This document shows, in pieces, positions 45,514-53,686 of a stretch of DNA of 64,000 nt. The number at the start of each line of letters is the position of its first letter. Positions within the stretch are counted from its first letter, which is position 1. The notes beneath the pieces were generated by a model. The model saw only the letters and a list, made by a program, of their open reading frames with translations. It was not told where the DNA came from and did no database searches. This DNA is from Pseudomonas antarctica. GTDB lineage: Bacteria > Pseudomonadota > Gammaproteobacteria > Pseudomonadales > Pseudomonadaceae. The stretch spans positions 3,162,001 to 3,226,000 of the forward strand of contig NZ_CP015600.1 in NCBI RefSeq assembly GCF_001647715.1, in the 5' to 3' direction. The position numbers were made by a program, and so were the translations under genes.

Positions 45514-46215
45514 CTAAACTACCGCCCCGAACAGCGCCCCCACGGCTGCCGTAATGCCCATGGCCAACGCACCCCAGAGGGTTACCCGCCAAGCGCCGAT
45601 CCCTATTTTTGCCCCCCCGGCCCTGGCTGCAATGGCGCCAAGGCCGGCAAGAAATACCAGCGACATGCCGGATATCCACGGCACAACACTGTCGGGCGGG
45701 GCGATGAAAATGACCGCCAGGGGCAAGGCGGCACCGAGCACGAAGCTGGCGGCCGAGGCCAGCGCTGCTTGCAGCGGTTTGGCCGCGAGTGCTGCGCTGA
45801 TGCCGAGCTCGTCTCGCGCGTGTGCGCCCAGTGCATCGTGTGCCATTAATTGATCGGCGACCTGATGGGCCAGCTCGGGCGATACCCCACGGTGCATGTA
45901 GATATGGGCAAGCTCGCTGTGCTCGGCTTTCGGGTTGCTGTCCAGCTCCGCCCGCTCCCGAGACAAGTCAGCCCGCTCGGTATCGGCTTGGGAGTGTACG
46001 GAAACATATTCACCCGCCGCCATGGACATCGCGCCCGCCACCAGCCCGGCAATGCCGGTAACGATCAGTGTGGAGTGGCTGGCGTTGGCGGCAGCGACGC
46101 CGATCAACAGGCTGGCCGTGGAGACGATCCCATCATTGGCCCCCAGGACAGCGGCACGCAGCCAGCCGATACGGTCACTGCGGTGGAGCTCGGTGTGCCG
46201 GTGCATGAATTTCAT
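45514..46215 (-). CDS. VIT-family (CCC1/VIT1) iron/manganese transporter
   Basis: A 233-residue membrane protein: first helix WLRAAVLGANDGIVSTASLLIGVA holds the D-G motif conserved in VIT transporters, then AGAMSMAAGEYVSVHSQADTERADLSRERAEL (metal-binding acidic helix) and two C-terminal hydrophobic hairpins. The E/A/D-rich loop is typical. VIT proteins move Fe2+/Mn2+ out of the cytoplasm. It is independent of the flavin operon next to it (44 bp from the ApbE stop). Confidence 0.9.
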   Translation of the reverse strand: MKFMHRHTELHRSDRIGWLRAAVLGANDGIVSTASLLIGVAAANASHSTLIVTGIAGLVAGAMSMAAGEYVSVHSQADTERADLSRERAELDSNPKAEHSELAHIYMHRGVSPELAHQVADQLMAHDALGAHARDELGISAALAAKPLQAALASAASFVLGAALPLAVIFIAPPDSVVPWISGMSLVFLAGLGAIAARAGGAKIGIGAWRVTLWGALAMGITAAVGALFGAVV

Positions 46216-46258: not shown

Positions 46259-47221
46259 TTAAGCCTGCGCTTGCAGGGTGCCGCCTACAATCGAAATTTC
46301 CGTTAGTTCGTCACCGTCGCGCAGCACGAACAATGCGTCCATCCCGCGTTCTTGTGCCAGGCGTGGGCCTTCAACTTCACCCAGCACCATCAGTGCCGTG
46401 GCCCAGGCATCGGCGAGCATGCACGAGCCCGCCACGACGGTAACCGCTGCGAGCGCGTTGCGCAGCGGTGCGCCGGTGACGGGGTTCATGGTGTGGGCGC
46501 AGGATTGCCCACTCATTTCCACCCAGTGGCGGTAGTCCCCGGACGTGGCGATGGCGGCGTCGACGAGTTCCATTACGCCCATGACTTGCCGCACGCCCCG
46601 GCAGGGTTTTTCAATGGCCACGATCCAGGGTTGGGCATCTGGCTTCATGCCCCGGGCGCGCATTTCGCCGTCAATGCCGACCAGGTAGCGGGTGATGTTT
46701 GACGCTTCCAGGCAACGGGCCAGTTCATCGACGCCAAAGCCTTTTGCGATGCCGTTCAAATCCAGGTTCAGCGGCGCCCGTTTGCGCACCCGATTGCGTT
46801 GCGAGTCCACCACCAGCGCCGCGCTGGCAGAGAGTCGCGCGCGTGGCAGTGGCATCGTGAGTGCTTGCGCGGTGATCGTCTGTTCGCCGGGGCCGAAGCC
46901 CCAGGCTTGCACCAGATCGCCGACGGCAATGTCGAAGGCTCCGCCGGATTGCTGGCTGACCCGTAACGCAGCGGCCAGCACCGTGCTCAGTTCCTTGGGC
47001 ACTGGCAGCCATTCCTGCTCGGCGGCTGCGTTGAGGCGGTTGAGGTCAGAGTCGGCTTTCCAGGTAGACATTTGCCGGTCCACCCGGCTCACAGCGTGGG
47101 CCAGGCGCTGGCCGATTTCGTCGGTGTCGATGCCGGCCGCCGCATAGAACACCGCGGTGTAGCGGGTGCCCATGGTCTCGCCGTTCAGGTTGTAGCGCTG
47201 CACATCAGTAGACATCTTCAC
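46259..47221 (-). CDS. apbE: ApbE, FAD:protein FMN transferase
   Basis: Attaches FMN covalently to Thr/Ser of target proteins. The 320-residue enzyme has N-terminal NLNGETMGTRYTAVFY, substrate/FAD motif LDLNGIAKGFGVDELA, and the C-terminal HTMNPVTGAPLRNALAAVTVVAGSCMLADAWATALMVLG (metal-binding D, T). Here no Sec signal is obvious, so it may act in the cytoplasm or be exported otherwise. It overlaps the PepSY flavoprotein gene by 17 bp; the likely target is the DUF2271 protein (SGAS motif). Confidence 0.9.
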   Translation of the reverse strand: MKMSTDVQRYNLNGETMGTRYTAVFYAAAGIDTDEIGQRLAHAVSRVDRQMSTWKADSDLNRLNAAAEQEWLPVPKELSTVLAAALRVSQQSGGAFDIAVGDLVQAWGFGPGEQTITAQALTMPLPRARLSASAALVVDSQRNRVRKRAPLNLDLNGIAKGFGVDELARCLEASNITRYLVGIDGEMRARGMKPDAQPWIVAIEKPCRGVRQVMGVMELVDAAIATSGDYRHWVEMSGQSCAHTMNPVTGAPLRNALAAVTVVAGSCMLADAWATALMVLGEVEGPRLAQERGMDALFVLRDGDELTEISIVGGTLQAQA

Positions 47222-49385
47222 GGTAGCGTCCTTGTGCCTTGAGGGTCAGTACGCTCAGGTTCAGCGGAGCCAATATTTCATCCAGGGCCTGCATCACGCC
47301 TTTGGCCATTTCACGACTGCCGCAGACCAGCACCTGGGCGCCTTTTTCCACCAGCCGGCGCAAGGACAGTGCATCACTGCGCAGCCGGTCCTGGACGTAG
47401 CCACCGTTCTGTACCTGGGAAAAAGCCGCGCGCAATGCGGTAAGTCGCTGGTCTGCCAGGTAGCGGTTAAGTTCAGGCTCGTACAGAAAGTCCGAGGCCG
47501 GGTTGCGCCCGCCCCAATACAAATGCATCGGGTGGCGGGCAGTGTTGTTGCGAATGAAGCCCGCCAGCGGGCCAATGCCGGTACCGGCACCGATCAGGAT
47601 CACCGGGTGTGCCCCCGACGCAGGACGAAACTGTGGGTTGGGCTGGATAAAGGCTTCGACCGAAGCGCCGAGGTCCAGGCCATGCAGGAGTTGCGAGCAG
47701 AGGCCTCCTTGGTGTTTGCGTACGCAAATCTCGAGCACGCCGTCCGTGGAACTGCTGGCCAGTGAATAAAAACGCGGTACCGGGCTATTCGCCGGGATAA
47801 TCCCTACCAGGTCTCCTGCCTGGAAGCCCGGTAGCTCGCTGTGCGCCTTGAAGCGCAGGACGTGGGTTGGCGCATTCACTTCTTCGCCATAAACGATGCG
47901 TTCGGCCAGCTCCAGTTGATAGGTGCGCGGGGGCTCCGGTGTATGGGCCAGGGCCAAGTCATGCCCCAGTGCTGTGGCCAGGGCGTGGCCCCAGCGCGCA
48001 AATTCCTGGGAAGACTGGCGGTTGACGGTTTCCAGCTCCAGCAACGGTGAGGCACCGGCCAGTTCCAGCGCGGCCTGCACCCGATGGGCGTACTGACAGA
48101 ACTGTGGAAACTGGCGGTCCCCAAACCCCAGTACTGCAAAGGGCAGGCCGGGTTTGACGCCCTTGTGGTTCAGCCGTGCCAGAAACTGCGCGGCCGACGC
48201 CGGTGCATCGCCATCACCGTGGGTCGCGGTGAGGATCAACAGTCTCTGGGCGTTGCGGTACTCGCCTTTCCATTCATTCATCGGCGCGCTGTGCACGTGG
48301 TGCCCAGCCTGATGCAAGGCCGCATGTAACGTGTTGGCAAACCCCCATGTGGTGTTGTTTTCAGTGCCTACCAGAATCACGCTGTCGGCCGAGTGAGCGG
48401 GGCTGTTGTGGCGAATGTTCGGACCGGCTTTGCGACGGCGCCACCAGAGCAGGATGCCGGTCACGCTCATCAATGGCACACAGAGGGCACAGAGCCCGAG
48501 TGGCAAGCCCAGCCACCAGAGGCCTTCTGCGGTGTGGAGCTGATAGACCCATTGGTAGACGGTGTGCATGGAGTCGTGGGGTTGATAGGACAGCAGGGCG
48601 CCGCTGACCGGGTCTACGTAGCCAACACCCTGGGCCGTGCGCAACGAGAACACATCGTTTGGGTTGCCCGGGCTCGGGTAGACCAGTTCGCGCAGGTCAT
48701 TCAGGTCGATGGCCTGCAAGGCCTGCAGGTTCGCCACCGGTAACGCCGGGCCGGCGCTGAGGTGGGTGGGGAAGGCCGGTTCACTCTGGCTACCATCGGC
48801 GATCAAGCCGAAGGTCGTGGCGGCCATGTACAGCCCGCTTACGGCCGACAGCAGCAGCCCGAGCAAAGCCAGGCGCCCGACTTCCGCATGCCAGCGTTGG
48901 CTGAACGTGCCGCGCAGTGGCCGCAGCAGGTTGCGCCAGCCACCCAGGCGCCGGGCCAGCAGCAACGCGCCGGACACTGCCAGGATCAACATGAACAACG
49001 CACCGACGCCCGACACGCCATGGCCCGGTGTGCCCATGAACAGCGCGCGGTGCAAGTCTTTCACCCAGCGGGTGAAGGTGGACGGCGCGTAGGGCGCGAG
49101 GCCCTGGCCGGTCAGTGGGTCAACCGTTTCCGCCCCGGACTGGCCATCGCGGTTGTAGTAGACGATGACCGTGCCGGAGGCGGTGCGCTGGATTTGCTCC
49201 ACGCCTGGAAAGTGATGTGCGACGCCTTCCGCCAACTGGCCGACATTAAGCTGGCCGGCAGCGGTGGACGTGTTGTGCAGGCGTTCCAGCGCCGGATCAA
49301 CCGACAATACCGCGCCACTGATGGCCAATATCATGACCAACAGGGCGGCGATCAGACCGGGCAGCGAATGAAACTGGCGAAGCAT
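47205..49385 (-). CDS. PepSY-membrane / flavodoxin-NAD(P)H reductase fusion
   Basis: A 726-residue membrane flavoprotein. The N-terminal half has PepSY-type helices (SLPGLIAALLVMILAISGAVLSVDP, VGALFMLILAVSGALLLARRL, LALLGLLLSAVSGLYMAATTF, WLGLPLGLCALCVPLMSVTGILLWW). A flavodoxin domain (ILTATHGDGDAPASAAQFL near 380) follows. The last part is a ferredoxin-NADP+ reductase-like domain (PRFYSLASSS for FAD; HPVILIGAGTGIGPLAGFI for NAD(P)), ending YREDVY. Predicted to move electrons from NAD(P)H across the membrane to periplasmic flavin partners. Overlaps apbE. Confidence 0.88.
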   Translation of the reverse strand: MLRQFHSLPGLIAALLVMILAISGAVLSVDPALERLHNTSTAAGQLNVGQLAEGVAHHFPGVEQIQRTASGTVIVYYNRDGQSGAETVDPLTGQGLAPYAPSTFTRWVKDLHRALFMGTPGHGVSGVGALFMLILAVSGALLLARRLGGWRNLLRPLRGTFSQRWHAEVGRLALLGLLLSAVSGLYMAATTFGLIADGSQSEPAFPTHLSAGPALPVANLQALQAIDLNDLRELVYPSPGNPNDVFSLRTAQGVGYVDPVSGALLSYQPHDSMHTVYQWVYQLHTAEGLWWLGLPLGLCALCVPLMSVTGILLWWRRRKAGPNIRHNSPAHSADSVILVGTENNTTWGFANTLHAALHQAGHHVHSAPMNEWKGEYRNAQRLLILTATHGDGDAPASAAQFLARLNHKGVKPGLPFAVLGFGDRQFPQFCQYAHRVQAALELAGASPLLELETVNRQSSQEFARWGHALATALGHDLALAHTPEPPRTYQLELAERIVYGEEVNAPTHVLRFKAHSELPGFQAGDLVGIIPANSPVPRFYSLASSSTDGVLEICVRKHQGGLCSQLLHGLDLGASVEAFIQPNPQFRPASGAHPVILIGAGTGIGPLAGFIRNNTARHPMHLYWGGRNPASDFLYEPELNRYLADQRLTALRAAFSQVQNGGYVQDRLRSDALSLRRLVEKGAQVLVCGSREMAKGVMQALDEILAPLNLSVLTLKAQGRYREDVY

Positions 49386-49410
49386 GTTCAGCCTCCTGAA
49401 GGGGTGGGTG

Positions 49411-49881
49411 CTACAGGTCGTAAGTAAACGCGTTGACGTAAGTGCTGCCGGTTGCCGGCTTGCCTGATCCTTGGGTGGTCAGGGGGACGCTGATGTCGGC
49501 TCGTCCTTCACGCTGGTTCTCCACGGCGCTGTCGATTCGGATCTGATACCCGGCATCAATCAAGGTGTCAGCCAATTGAACACTGACTTTGAGGGTGCGT
49601 CCGCTGCCCACACTCGCACCGCTGACCCCATCAAACTCCCTGGGGTTCTGGCCGCTGCCGCGGGCCCAGTCAGTCAAATGCCGGTAGTACTTGGCCTTCT
49701 TGCCGGCGACCCACAGGGTTTTCTGGTACTGGCCGTTGGCATCGGTGAGGTAAATCGCCAGGTACGCATCGTTACCGTTGTAGTCCTTGAGCTGGGTCGT
49801 CAGGGTCACTTCACGGGCCTGGGCCAGCCCCGGCAAGGCAATGGCGCCGGCGAGGCAGGTTGCAGCGATGAATTTTTTCAT
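49411..49881 (-). CDS. DUF2271 protein with predicted flavinylation motif
   Basis: A 156-residue secreted protein: signal MKKFIAATCLAGAIALPGLAQA, then a beta-rich domain with D84-G-V-S-G-A-S90, matching the D-x-x-(S/T)-G-A-(S/T) motif where ApbE attaches FMN; Ser90 would be the flavinylated residue. AGGA precedes ATG 49881; the long frame to 50061 overlaps the PepSY gene. Gene order with apbE and the PepSY reductase suggests an extracytoplasmic electron carrier. Confidence 0.8.
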   Translation of the reverse strand: MKKFIAATCLAGAIALPGLAQAREVTLTTQLKDYNGNDAYLAIYLTDANGQYQKTLWVAGKKAKYYRHLTDWARGSGQNPREFDGVSGASVGSGRTLKVSVQLADTLIDAGYQIRIDSAVENQREGRADISVPLTTQGSGKPATGSTYVNAFTYDL

Positions 49882-49966
49882 GAGGATGTCCTGGTTGAGC
49901 GTTGTAGCGAGAGCCTGGACTTGCTGGCTGACAACAACCTGAAAGCCCGGGGAGAAATCGAAATGC

Positions 49967-50290
49967 TCATTCAGCACCCGGGCTGACGAGGTAGTCCCGG
50001 GCATCGCCGTCGTCGCCGAAATTGACGTGCAACGTGCGCAGACGCAGGGAGGCGGGTGCATAACGCGCCTCGATGGCGTTGCCCCTGCGGTCAGTGCCCC
50101 TGAGCGTGTAGCAACCGTCGTCGACCTTGATGCGCTGCACGCTCCAGCCGTATTGCTGCTCTACGCGTTGACGCAAGGTCTCTCGCGGTTGCCAATCGCT
50201 GACGGGCTCGCTGCAGTCGTCATCGGCCAACACGCTACCGCTGAGCAACAGGCTCAACAGCGCGGTACGTGCAATAAACGCGGTTTTCAT
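49967..50290 (-). CDS. Small secreted PepSY-domain protein
   Basis: A 107-residue protein: signal MKTAFIARTALLSLLLSGSVLA, then WQPRETLRQRVEQQYGWSVQRIKVDDGCYTLRGTDRRGNAIEARYAPASLRLR, a PepSY core. GGAG precedes ATG 50290. First gene of the minus-strand operon, divergent from the two-component system. PepSY domains inhibit or scaffold partner proteins; here it likely belongs to the electron-transfer set. Confidence 0.78.
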   Translation of the reverse strand: MKTAFIARTALLSLLLSGSVLADDDCSEPVSDWQPRETLRQRVEQQYGWSVQRIKVDDGCYTLRGTDRRGNAIEARYAPASLRLRTLHVNFGDDGDARDYLVSPGAE

Positions 50291-50352
50291 GATCTGTCTC
50301 CTGCCGGATAGGCCTCTGTGGCCTACCCTAAGGGGCATTCCTGACAACCAGC

Positions 50353-50368
50353 TGAATCTTCAGATTCA
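50353..50368. promoter_or_regulatory. Operator candidate between the PepSY gene and the response regulator
   Basis: TGAATCT (50353-50359) and AGATTCA (50362-50368) are a perfect 7-bp inverted repeat with a 2-base spacer. It lies 63 bp from the PepSY start and 54 bp from the response-regulator start, between divergent operons, so it is the best candidate site for that regulator. Confidence 0.55.
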
Positions 50369-50421
50369 CCTCAGGTCTGGCGGTTAAGGTGCTGCACGAC
50401 ACTCATCAGGAGAGGTAGCAG

Positions 50422-51081
50422 ATGCGGGTTTTATTGGTTGAGGATGCCCCCGGGTTGGGGGAGGCAGTGCGCGAGCAGATCGCCGACGACGGCCATGCGG
50501 TTGATTGGGTGCAGCGCCTGAACCACGCGAGCAATAGCGTGCGCACCACGCCTTATGACTTGATCCTGCTGGACCTGATGTTGCCGGACGGTCGCGGGTT
50601 GGACTTTTTGCGCGAGCAGCGCTCAGCAGGCAACGTGACCCCGGTGATTATCCTCACCGCCCAGGACCAAATATCCGATCGCATTGCCGGCCTCAATGCC
50701 GGCGCTGACGACTACTTGGTCAAACCGTTCGACCTGTTTGAACTCTCGGCCCGGGTGGCAGCCGTGGCCCGACGTTACAGCGGTAACCCCAACCCGCAGA
50801 TCAAACTCGGTGAACTGCAGATCGACATGAACGCTCGCACAGTCCAGCGCGCCGGTATCACCGTGGATTTGACCGCACGTGAGTGGGCGCTGTTCGAGGC
50901 ATTCGTACAGCGCCCCAATGCGTTGCTGTCGAAGTCCCAGCTCGAAGAGCGCCTGTACGCTTTTGGCGCGGAGATCGAGAGCAACACCATTGAGGTCTAT
51001 ATCAGTCGCCTGCGTAAAAAACTGGGACGCGACCTGGTTGAGACCGTTCGTGGCATGGGTTATCGGTTGACGCCAGTATGA
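50422..51081 (+). CDS. OmpR-family response regulator
   Basis: A 219-residue regulator of the QseB/PmrA type: D8 (VLLVEDAPG), phosphoacceptor D51 (ILLDLMLPDGRG), T in IILTAQD, K in YLVKPFDL; winged helix with VDLTAREWALFEAFVQRPNALLSKSQLEERLY and IEVYISRLRKKLG. AGGAGAGG precedes ATG 50422. It is divergent from the PepSY/DUF2271/ApbE operon, which it probably controls. The trigger is unknown (redox or metal are guesses). Confidence 0.9.
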   Translation: MRVLLVEDAPGLGEAVREQIADDGHAVDWVQRLNHASNSVRTTPYDLILLDLMLPDGRGLDFLREQRSAGNVTPVIILTAQDQISDRIAGLNAGADDYLVKPFDLFELSARVAAVARRYSGNPNPQIKLGELQIDMNARTVQRAGITVDLTAREWALFEAFVQRPNALLSKSQLEERLYAFGAEIESNTIEVYISRLRKKLGRDLVETVRGMGYRLTPV

Positions 51082-52412
51082 AGTCGCCGATAAGCCTGCA
51101 AAAACGCCTCGGCCTGGGATTGACCATGGGTATGACCTTGCTCTGGCTGGGAGCGACCGTCGGTGCCTGGTTGGTGGTGCAACATGAACTGAACGAGGCG
51201 TTCGACAGCGCCCTGGAAGAGACCGCGCAACGCATCCTGCCCTTGGCCGTGCTGGAGATCAGCAACCGCGAGGCGCCCCGCGAAGCACAACACGTGGCCA
51301 CCCTGAAAATGCGCAAGGAATACCTGACCTATCTGGTGCGTGATGCACAGGGCCGGATTTTGATGCAATCCCACGATGCCAACCCGAAGATCTTCAACAA
51401 ACATCCGGATGAAGGGTTTTCCACCACTGAAAAGTACCGGCTGTATGGGGCTAGCGCGCTACGCAAAACGCTGTTCATTGAGATTGCCGAACCGCTGGCG
51501 CATCGCCGTGAAGCGGCGCAGGAAGCCTTGTTTGCGTTGTTGCTGCCGTTGTTGGCGCTGATCCCTATCAGCCTGTTGGGCACCTGGTTATTTGTGCGCA
51601 TCAGCTTGCGCAGCGTATTGGCTTATCGCCGCCCCCTGGAAACCCGGGGGGCAGGGGATTTGTCAGCGATCAACGTGGCAGGGCTGCCGGCAGAAATCGA
51701 CCCGTTGGCCGACGCGGTCAACCACTTGCTTGAGCGCTTGCGCAAAACGCTGGAGGCCGAGCGCAGCTTTACTGCAAACAGCGCCCATGAACTGCGCACG
51801 CCGCTGGCCGCGACATTGGCGCAAATTCAGCGCTTGAGGCAAGAAGCACCAGAAGGCCCTTTACGCGTGCGCGCGGCAAAGATCGAAAACTCATTGCGCG
51901 ACCTGGCGCGGCTCTCGGAAAAGCTCATGCAGCTGGCCAAAGCCGAGGGTGGTGGGCTGTTATCCGAGGCGCCCCAGGACCTGATCCCATTATTGGCCCA
52001 CGGGGTGGACGAGTGGAATCGCAGCAGTGGGCAGCGAATTGAATTGCGGCTACCCACCCAGCGCAGCGTTTACTCAGCCATAGACCCTGATGCGTTTGGC
52101 ATCCTGCTGCGCAACCTGATCGAAAATGCGTTGAAGTACGGTGCCGTGGACCAGCCGGTCGAAGTCAGCCTCACAGACCAGGCGCTGCTGCAGGTGATCA
52201 ACGGCGGCCCGGCCGTGCCGGAGGAGGTGTTGCAGCGCCTGACCGAACGCTTTGTGCGGGGTAACAGCGAAGCCAGTGGTTCAGGGTTGGGCTTGGCGAT
52301 TGCCAAAACGATTGCGCTAGGGGTCAAAGCAACGTTAACCCTGGCCTCGCCCGCAACAGGCCGGGAGGAAGGGTTTGAAGTCCGCGTCCAGTTTTTGTGC
52401 CTGCCAGGGTAA
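51078..52412 (+). CDS. Membrane sensor histidine kinase
   Basis: A 444-residue kinase: N-terminal helix RLGLGLTMGMTLLWLGATVGAWLVV, periplasmic sensor to about 150, second helix ALFALLLPLLALIPISLLGTWLFVRI, HAMP-like, H-box SFTANSAHELRTPLAATLAQIQRL, N-box NLIENALKYG and G-box ASGSGLGLAIAKTIAL. Coupled to the regulator by ATGA overlap. The ligand is not visible. Confidence 0.9.
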   Translation: MKSPISLQKRLGLGLTMGMTLLWLGATVGAWLVVQHELNEAFDSALEETAQRILPLAVLEISNREAPREAQHVATLKMRKEYLTYLVRDAQGRILMQSHDANPKIFNKHPDEGFSTTEKYRLYGASALRKTLFIEIAEPLAHRREAAQEALFALLLPLLALIPISLLGTWLFVRISLRSVLAYRRPLETRGAGDLSAINVAGLPAEIDPLADAVNHLLERLRKTLEAERSFTANSAHELRTPLAATLAQIQRLRQEAPEGPLRVRAAKIENSLRDLARLSEKLMQLAKAEGGGLLSEAPQDLIPLLAHGVDEWNRSSGQRIELRLPTQRSVYSAIDPDAFGILLRNLIENALKYGAVDQPVEVSLTDQALLQVINGGPAVPEEVLQRLTERFVRGNSEASGSGLGLAIAKTIALGVKATLTLASPATGREEGFEVRVQFLCLPG

Positions 52413-52606: not shown

Positions 52607-53686
52607 ATGGCTCATTCAACCAGTGACCAACTAGATGTAGTCATTATCGGCGGGGGGCAGTCAGCCTTAGCGGTAGCGTATTTCCTACGTCGAACCAAAC
52701 TTTCATTCGTTATCCTTGATGCTGAGGAAGAACCCGGTGGTGCTTGGCGGCACGGCTGGAACTCGTTGCGTTTATTCTCCCCCTCCACCTGGAGTTCGAT
52801 CCCTGGCTGGATGATGCCGCCCGAGCAAGAGGGCTATCCAACACGAAATCATGTGGTCGACTATCTCAACCAATATGAGCAGCGCTACCAATTTCCAGTT
52901 GAGCGTCCGGTTCGGGCCGTTTCTGTAGAGCGTATAGAGTCTGGCTTACGAGTGCGTTCTGACGACAAGCATTGGGATGCCAAGGTTGTAATCAGCGCTA
53001 CCGGCACTTGGAGCAATCCGTATATCCCTCACTATCCTAATGCCGAGCTATTCAACGGTCGGCAGTTGCACTCCGCGCACTACGTTGAAGCGCAAGCGTT
53101 TGCTGGCAAGAAGGTTTTGGTGGTGGGTGGTGGTAATTCAGGAGCACAGATTTTGGCGGAAGTATCCAAGGTCGCTGAGACCACTTGGGTAACCTCTACC
53201 GAGCCAGTTTTTTTGCCAGATGAAGTGGATGGACGGGTGCTATTCGAGCGGGCTACTCAGCGCTTGAAAGCTCAACAGGAGGGGCGTGTCATTGATCAAC
53301 CCGTCGGCGGGTTGGGAGACATCGTCATGGTGCCGCCGGTTGTAGAGGCCCGTGAACGTGAAGCTCTAAAATCTGTACGTCCATTTGAAAGTTTCACTCA
53401 CGAAGGCGTTATTTGGGCCGATGGGTCTGAGTCTGCCGTGGATGTGGTGATCTGGTGTACCGGATTTAGACCAGCCCTTGAGCATCTGGATACGCTGGGA
53501 GTGATCAACACCGAAGGCCGTGTTCAGGTCGAAGGCACTCACTCTATCCAAGAACCAAGACTATGGCTGGTCGGCTATGGCGAGTGGACAGGTTCGGCTT
53601 CCGCCACACTGATCGGTGTTACACGCACAGCGCGCAGCACAGTCAATCAGATTGCAACCTTCATTGGCGATCCGTCCTTGGCCTAG
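52607..53686 (+). CDS. ArsO-like NAD(P)/FAD-dependent monooxygenase
   Basis: A 359-residue flavoprotein: two Rossmann motifs ([17 protein letters not shown] near 11-27 for [22 protein letters not shown] near 167-185 for NADPH) and [11 protein letters not shown] near the end. ArsO-like proteins sit in arsenic-resistance loci; here a truncated permease follows but no arsR/arsH/arsC is present, so arsenic use is unsure and a role in sulfur or metalloid redox is possible. ATG 52607. Confidence 0.8.

What the first reader, a model, noticed from the sequence alone, without database searches (positions are those of the whole stretch)
46259..50368. Compact ApbE-flavinylated extracytoplasmic electron-transfer module with its own two-component system
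Seen: four minus-strand genes (secreted PepSY, DUF2271, PepSY-flavodoxin-NAD(P)H reductase, ApbE) divergent from a response regulator and kinase, with a perfect 7-2-7 inverted repeat in the shared promoter. Known: ApbE attaches FMN to Ser/Thr in D-x-x-(S/T)-G-A-(S/T). Seen: the DUF2271 protein has D84-G-V-S-G-A-S90 after its signal peptide. Inference: NAD(P)H electrons pass via the fusion flavoprotein to a covalently flavinylated DUF2271 carrier for an unknown periplasmic acceptor, under control of the adjacent system. The acceptor is the open question.
Basis: partly seen in the sequence, partly recalled or inferred. Interest (0 to 1): 0.72.

Follow-up and report, generated by a model that had tools for sequence, protein, structure and literature searches.

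The report
TCS-controlled flavin electron-export operon
A Pseudomonas operon appears to build a wire that carries electrons out of the cell onto a protein with a glued-on vitamin B2 cofactor, probably to reduce iron; it belongs to a known kind of system, but it has its own sensor switch, and its cofactor-attaching enzyme appears to sit on the wrong side of the membrane.

Summary
Four minus-strand genes (PepSY_2, DUF2271, PepSY_TM-flavodoxin-FNR fusion, ApbE) diverge from an OmpR-type regulator and a QseC/HprS-like kinase, and DUF2271 carries D84-G-V-S-G-A-S90. This is a PepSY-like flavinylation system, a kind described by Meheust et al. 2021, so the core idea is right but not new. Added here: (1) VIT1, a ferrous-metal transporter family, lies 43 bp downstream on the same strand (directly after apbE in 32 of 65 distinct loci), pointing to iron. 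(2) The 7-2-7 palindrome is the junction of two facing direct repeats TTCAG-N6-GTCAG; a third copy precedes DUF2271. All three promoters carry a site 47-66 bp before the start codon, the only three matches in 64 kb, and the site recurs at the regulator or PepSY_2 promoter in distant Pseudomonadota. Local control by this two-component system is well supported. (3) This ApbE lacks a signal peptide, as do nearly all in related loci, while 20 second ApbEs examined all show a lipobox by eye. Four of 43 genomes, this one included, have no other ApbE. Flavinylation may therefore precede export, which no paper I opened reports. Acceptor and sensed signal remain unshown.

The parts
45514..46215 (-). 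VIT1-family Fe2+/Mn2+ transporter, last gene of the probable operon
   Evidence: PF01988, 230 bits; PDB match VIT1 6iu3; 43 bp after apbE, same strand; directly downstream in 32 of 65 distinct loci, gap -4 to 79; no terminator-like site listed in the 43-bp gap
46259..47221 (-). ApbE FAD:protein FMN transferase, without signal peptide
   Evidence: PF02424, 267 bits; PDB ApbE matches; no hydrophobic leader; only ApbE found in the genome; H243, D271, T275 conserved in at least 97% of 70 sequences
47205..49385 (-). PepSY_TM - flavodoxin - FAD/NAD(P)H reductase fusion, transmembrane electron carrier
   Evidence: Pfam; H6, H112, H166, H284 invariant in 23 aligned sequences; AlphaFold2 model with 4 long hydrophobic helices, pLDDT 81, pTM 0.53
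49411..49881 (-). DUF2271 secreted flavin carrier
   Evidence: PF10029, 123 bits; Sec-type leader MKKFIAATCLAGAIALPGLAQA
49612..49632 (-). FMN attachment motif D84-G-V-S-G-A-S90
   Evidence: conservation
49928..49943 (-). Regulator site TTCAGGTTGTTGTCAG, 47-62 bp before the DUF2271 start
49967..50290 (-). PepSY_2 small secreted protein (DbfQ-like position beside the kinase/regulator pair)
   Evidence: PF13670, 80 bits
50341..50356 (-). Regulator site TTCAGCTGGTTGTCAG, 51-66 bp before the PepSY_2 start
50353..50368 (.). 7-2-7 inverted repeat: junction of the two facing direct repeats
50359..50374 (+). Regulator site TTCAGATTCACCTCAG, 48-63 bp before the response-regulator start (autoregulation)
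50422..51081 (+). OmpR/PhoB-type response regulator (PmrA/QseB-like)
   Evidence: PF00072, PF00486; best NCBIfam hits PmrA, RppA, QseB, each below its cut-off
51078..52412 (+). Sensor histidine kinase (QseC/HprS-like, 2CSK_N sensor domain)
   Evidence: PDB QseC and HprS matches

Best explanation
This is a two-component-controlled PepSY-like flavinylation operon. NAD(P)H electrons enter the cytoplasmic FNR and flavodoxin domains of the fusion, cross the membrane over two hemes held by H6/H166 (inner face) and H112/H284 (outer face), and reduce FMN bound covalently to Ser90 of periplasmic DUF2271. The carrier most likely delivers electrons to ferric iron or a ferric chelate, and VIT1 handles the resulting Fe2+. 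Because the only ApbE is leaderless, FMN is probably attached to the DUF2271 precursor in the cytoplasm before Sec export. The kinase, probably gated by the small PepSY_2 protein, phosphorylates the regulator, which binds TTCAG-N6-GTCAG repeats at all three promoters and so controls PepSY_2, DUF2271-fusion-apbE-VIT1 and itself. Shown here: domains, motif, conservation, shared sites, lack of a leader. Inferred: flavinylation of this protein, hemes, electron direction, iron as acceptor, pre-export modification, regulator binding, activation rather than repression.
For: Domains. DUF2271 flavinylation by its ApbE was shown for A. ursilacus and lost on mutating the site (PMC8238504, passages). PepSY-like clusters with DUF2271, VIT1 and NAD-binding domains are proposed iron reductases (section 11), and a related Caulobacter operon is a Fur target and matters under EDTA (PMC11870441, passages). 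Four invariant His and a core of four long helices fit the FoxB two-heme layout described in PMC13038864 (passages). VIT1 follows directly in 32 of 65 distinct loci. Ferric_reduct genes lie between the regulator and DUF2271 in L173, L179 and L180. Sites: exactly 3 in 64 kb, at three promoters; at 62 of 72 DUF2271, 41 of 48 PepSY_2 and 49 of 53 regulator promoters; at the regulator or PepSY_2 promoter in 10 of the 11 loci with the two-component system among 13 more distant loci. ApbE leader test: 2 of 77 over threshold, both only from doubtful upstream starts, against 19 of 20 second ApbEs; genomes with only one ApbE: 4 of 43.
Against: No biochemistry was done. VIT1 was not found in 33 of 65 distinct loci and may be an exporter, so assimilation is not secured. 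No Fur-box-like site rises above shuffles in either promoter, unlike the Fur-controlled systems. In the 13 distant loci the site stands at the DUF2271 start in only 2; in several, other genes lie between and site pairs stand further upstream. Nine loci without an adjacent regulator (L051-L054, L070-L072, L098, L099) keep a site before DUF2271, so another regulator may use it there. The A. ursilacus ApbE of the published test did have a signal peptide, which the authors cut off, so leaderless ApbE is not universal in DUF2271 systems. FoxB was not among the 60 of 107 PDB sequence matches shown.
Confidence: 0.6

Rival explanations
1. Same wire, but the acceptor is not iron: copper (as proposed for the PepSY_TM protein CrpH) or an oxidised envelope component, with the two-component system sensing metal or oxidative envelope stress.
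For: CrpH is speculated to be a periplasmic copper reductase (PMC13038864, passages). The kinase matches HprS, the partner of the MsrPQ operon (the HprRS-MsrPQ link is recalled). The kinase sensor domain is highly conserved with many acidic and His residues, so one conserved signal is likely.
Against: VIT1 in 32 of 65 distinct loci, Ferric_reduct partners in L173, L179 and L180, and no MsrP, copper protein or TonB receptor among the ten window proteins scanned.
Confidence: 0.25
2. Iron detoxification: VIT1 exports Fe2+ and the reductase keeps iron ferrous for export, with the kinase sensing excess iron, as PmrB and BqsS do (recalled).
For: The VIT-domain protein MbfA is treated as an iron export system (PMC7762939, passages). 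VIT proteins exchange Fe2+ for H+ (PfVIT, PMC5309874, title and abstract start in the listing). No Fur-like site was found. E37-x-x-E40 is nearly invariant in the kinase.
Against: Published relatives are Fur-repressed or raised under iron limitation. VIT1 was not found in 33 of 65 distinct loci. ExxE at that spot may be general to the QseC family (recalled).
Confidence: 0.2
3. The leaderless ApbE modifies a cytoplasmic protein, and DUF2271 is flavinylated by another route or not at all.
For: Cytoplasmic ApbE is known for a soluble Klebsiella fumarate reductase, and the same review says a cytosolic ApbE failed to complement an apbE mutant (PMC12052999, passages). One other frame of unknown function in this genome, L168, has FDGVTGAS.
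Against: DUF2271 is the only motif-bearing protein among eight of the cluster and its neighbours. [ST]GA[ST] is kept in 78 of 78 DUF2271 examined (77 by the pattern, L183 by eye). One ApbE and no FMN_bind protein were found in the genome.
Confidence: 0.08

Closest known systems
PepSY-like flavinylation systems (Meheust et al. 2021, PMC8238504)
   Same: PepSY_TM protein with NAD-binding domain, DUF2271, ApbE, sometimes VIT1; flavinylation motif
   Different: Here an adjacent two-component system and no Fur-like site; no DUF4198 or TonB receptor among the ten window proteins scanned; flavodoxin fused in. That paper's main text has no 'histidine kinase' or 'response regulator', and 'two-component' only in a reference title; its supplementary tables were not seen
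FoxB / CrpH PepSY_TM reductases
   Same: PepSY_TM core with four His at positions fitting two hemes
   Different: Fused cytoplasmic flavodoxin-FNR and a separate flavin carrier
DbfQRS and BqsRS-PA2658 modules (PMC12714742, passages)
   Same: Small secreted PepSY protein beside a kinase and regulator, sometimes on opposite strands
   Different: Here Pfam PepSY_2 rather than PepSY, and the module controls a redox operon
HprRS-MsrPQ (recalled)
   Same: Two-component system beside a heme membrane electron carrier
   Different: No MsrP among the proteins scanned; PepSY_TM instead of MsrQ; flavin carrier

Membership tests
PepSY-like flavinylation system | PepSY_TM (PF03929) membrane protein in the cluster | tested here: met
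   140 bits
PepSY-like flavinylation system | ApbE and a flavinylation substrate (DUF2271) in the cluster | tested here: met
PepSY-like flavinylation system | [S/T]GA[S/T] site conserved | tested here: met
   S90 64 of 64; [ST]GA[ST] 78 of 78
PepSY-like flavinylation system | At least one secreted component | tested here: met
   DUF2271 and PepSY_2 leaders by sequence and hydrophobicity
PepSY-like flavinylation system | FMN really bound at the site | not testable with these tools
   needs mass spectrometry
PepSY-like flavinylation system | Fur control (reported for some members; not defining) | tested here: not met
   best 9 of 19 matches to a recalled consensus in each of two promoters, below the shuffle means of 9.2 and 9.7
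PepSY-like flavinylation system | Secreted DUF4198 (frequent, 1500 of 3220 clusters; not defining) | tested here: not met
   none among ten window proteins
DbfQRS-like module | Small secreted PepSY protein within four genes of kinase/regulator | tested here: met
   PepSY_2 rather than PepSY
DbfQRS-like module | PepSY protein binds and restrains the kinase | not tested
   no complex prediction available
MsrPQ | MsrP molybdoenzyme present in the cluster | tested here: not met
   no such domain among ten window proteins
NQR/RNF/NosR flavinylation | FMN_bind (PF04205) protein | tested here: not met
   none found in the whole genome

The most novel reading that the evidence does not exclude
Pre-export flavinylation: a cytoplasmic ApbE attaches FMN to the unfolded DUF2271 precursor, and the Sec machinery then moves a flavin-bearing chain across the membrane. 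This would be general for this branch of DUF2271 systems, so that periplasmic flavin carriers can be made without any periplasmic FAD supply.
Probability: 0.45. Interest if true: 0.75.

Novelty: new variant of a known kind. Interest (0 to 1): 0.52.

Why it matters
It ties a conserved two-component system to flavin-based electron export in several lineages of Pseudomonadota, gives a short binding site that can be tested directly, and offers genomes with a single leaderless ApbE in which the question of where periplasmic flavoproteins receive their flavin becomes a clean experiment. ApbE is generally taken to act in the periplasm on secreted targets.

Tried and rejected
Palindrome as operator: rejected. 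Facing repeats are present in 48 of 53 regulator upstream regions, 19 bp apart in 44, but 23, 26 and 35 bp apart in L040, L065/L066 and L060. They are 34 bp apart at the divergent promoter of six distant loci, 26 in L179 and 54 in L180. A separate copy stands before DUF2271.

Wider regulon: strict CTGAC-N6-CTGAA gave 23 hits in the genome (control pattern 7). Eight are inside one long repetitive ORF, two are ours, 11 are inside mechanically called ORFs of at least 100 aa, and two (L125, L136) lie between genes without the expected placement. A looser pattern was not tried genome-wide.

Tat export of a pre-folded DUF2271: no twin-Arg motif in 77 distinct sequences. ArsO as a module member: seen near only a few loci, in varying place and strand.

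NADPH versus NADH: the residue after S656 that would help bind the 2'-phosphate is Q in 53 and R in 10 of 64, and the window has G where the reductase family usually has Lys (the rule is recalled), so the donor is left open.

Canonical (TonB/Fur-type) DUF2271 clusters: many of their ApbEs also lack a clear leader, but L195 is an evident lipoprotein, L112 is fused behind a leader and L185, L186 and L108 are ambiguous, so I claim nothing general there.

DUF2271 model (alignment A1): never accepted, machine busy. Fold search of the fusion model: busy.

Literature. For a two-component system with these parts: 7 listed, none opened; 9 listed, one opened, PMC11195947, passages; no papers; 25 listed of 213; opened PMC12714742 and PMC3377617, passages, besides PMC13038864. 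For DUF2271: (12 papers, 10 listed, five opened in passages). For ApbE leaders: (5 listed, one opened, PMC12052999, passages). None of what I opened reports this combination or a leaderless ApbE serving an exported target; the library holds open-licence papers only, and supplementary files were not seen.
Full report
What is there. The window lies in a 6.6-Mb genome of three contigs; its near relatives are Pseudomonas. Pfam gives, on the minus strand from promoter to end, PepSY_2, DUF2271, a fusion of PepSY_TM, flavodoxin and FAD/NAD-binding domains, and ApbE, then VIT1 43 bp on; on the plus strand an OmpR-type regulator and a QseC-like kinase. The fusion and apbE overlap by 17 bp. No terminator-like site was listed in the 43 bp between apbE and VIT1.

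Conservation. A DUF2271 homologue was found in 43 of 298 genus genomes, our own included. I fetched 82 loci; 72 match our DUF2271, 65 of them with distinct sequence. Of 65: fusion 65, ApbE 64, kinase 46, regulator 45, PepSY_2 43, VIT1 32. Where VIT1 is present it is on the same strand directly after apbE, gap -4 to 79 bp. A phylum sample found DUF2271 over the cut-off in 65 of 398 genomes. Of 14 further hits scoring 98-123 bits, as ours does, I fetched 13: 11 of 13 have the kinase and regulator, 11 ApbE, 12 the fusion, and 4 VIT1 in the locus, not always adjacent.

The carrier. D84 is kept in 63 of 64 aligned DUF2271; G85, G88, A89 and S90 in 64 of 64. The same site in another DUF2271 is flavinylated by its ApbE in E. 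coli and not after mutation (PMC8238504, passages). ApbE here keeps H243, D271 and T275. The fusion keeps H6, H112, H166 and H284 in all 23 aligned sequences; in a wider set of 64, H6 is at 98%. The AlphaFold2 model (pLDDT 81, pTM 0.53) shows long helices 2-37, 119-147, 161-191 and 290-320 with strands between the first and second and between the third and fourth. With the flavodoxin inside, that puts H6 and H166 on the inner side and H112 and H284 on the outer side, the two-plus-two layout reported for FoxB and modelled for CrpH (PMC13038864, passages). Heme binding is inferred.

Control. The palindrome at 50353-50368 is real and is kept in 32 of 53 regulator upstream regions; a direct repeat CTGA-N7-CTGA is in 53 of 53. 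That repeat occurs 111 times in 23,638 strand-bases upstream of the regulator genes, of 172 times in all 1,910,084 strand-bases of those loci. Read along each gene it is TTCAG-N6-GTCAG, mostly about 45-65 bp before the start: 62 of 72 DUF2271, 41 of 48 PepSY_2, 49 of 53 regulator promoters. TTCAG-N7-TCAG occurs exactly three times in the 64-kb window, at those three promoters; shuffles average 0.44, and 2 of 100 reach three anywhere. In the 11 distant loci with the two-component system, 10 carry it at the regulator or PepSY_2 promoter (9 of 11 regulator, 9 of 10 PepSY_2; L184 misses both), but only 2 of 13 distant loci have it at the DUF2271 start itself. An 11-bp direct repeat is the expected kind of site of an OmpR-family dimer (recalled). 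The variable distance between facing copies argues against a palindromic operator. Much of the DNA-binding domain of the regulator is near-invariant in 55 sequences. Against: nine loci without an adjacent regulator keep a site before DUF2271.

The ApbE puzzle. In most Pseudomonas loci the frame upstream of the apbE start closes within about 10 codons, leaving no room for a leader. By a simple hydrophobicity test, 2 of 77 ApbEs in DUF2271 loci pass (L069 and L108, only from doubtful upstream starts), against 71 of 72 DUF2271, 46 of 47 PepSY_2 and 19 of 20 second ApbEs; all 20 second ApbEs show a lipobox-like L-x-[GA]-C by eye. All 11 ApbEs of the distant loci fail it too. No trained signal-peptide predictor was available. 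Four of 43 genomes (G000, G006, G176, G243) have no second ApbE match, and no FMN_bind protein was found in the window's genome. None of 77 distinct DUF2271 has a twin-arginine motif before the site. A review describes most ApbEs as secreted lipoproteins, names a cytosolic one that serves a cytosolic enzyme, and reports a cytosolic ApbE that failed to complement (PMC12052999, passages). The simplest reading is that FMN is attached before export. ApbE and DUF2271 with their leaders cut off do react inside E. coli, so the chemistry is possible there; that the native A. ursilacus ApbE has a leader also shows that not every DUF2271 system is built this way. That Sec passes a flavin-bearing chain is unshown.

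Function. Published relatives are tied to iron reduction and uptake, VIT1 is a ferrous-iron transporter family, and three distant loci carry a Ferric_reduct gene between the regulator and DUF2271, two others a cytochrome b561. I therefore put iron first. VIT proteins may run outward, so assimilation and detoxification are both open. A small secreted PepSY protein beside a kinase and regulator is a known regulatory arrangement: DbfQ governs V. cholerae DbfS, and such modules are widespread (PMC12714742, passages). PepSY_2 here is best read as such a partner.

Verdict. A sound observation of a known kind of system, with a distinct regulatory branch and a topological oddity that none of the papers I opened discusses. 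New variant of a known kind.

Noticed in passing
L172 7963-8301, L173 6646-7035, L175 4007-4438, L182 9304-9669, L183 8213-8617: Secreted-looking proteins with runs of Asp lie between the PepSY_2 or regulator gene and DUF2271 in distant relatives; L172, L173 and L175 share a C-terminal PP-x-NGLF-like motif. No Pfam match for the four tested. Possibly metal-binding.
   Followed up: partly
L103-L105, L108, L187, L189, L193: Canonical DUF2271 with DGVTGPTRP or DGVTQPTKP instead of the GA motif although apbE is in the cluster: a variant or lost flavinylation site.
   Followed up: no
L185, L186, L199, L204: Canonical-type ApbEs share an N-terminal motif like VLVP before the fold, of unknown role.
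   Followed up: no
L168 (G000:C1:5139401-5139420): A 311-residue frame with FDGVTGAS resembling the DUF2271 site; unknown protein.
   Followed up: no
G000:C1:151566-160401: A very long open frame with matches to the regulator site at multiples of 630 bp: a repetitive gene.
   Followed up: no
window 52607-53686: ArsO-type flavin monooxygenase (589 bits, cut-off 425) just after the kinase gene; not a conserved neighbour.
   Followed up: partly
L182, kinase frame from 9955: The kinase sensor domain carries a long acidic insert, in a locus that also encodes a poly-Asp protein.
   Followed up: no
L180: PepSY_2, kinase, regulator and DUF2271 with a Ferric_reduct/FAD/NAD protein, but no fusion or ApbE found in the 18-kb locus: the membrane carrier seems swapped.
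   Followed up: no
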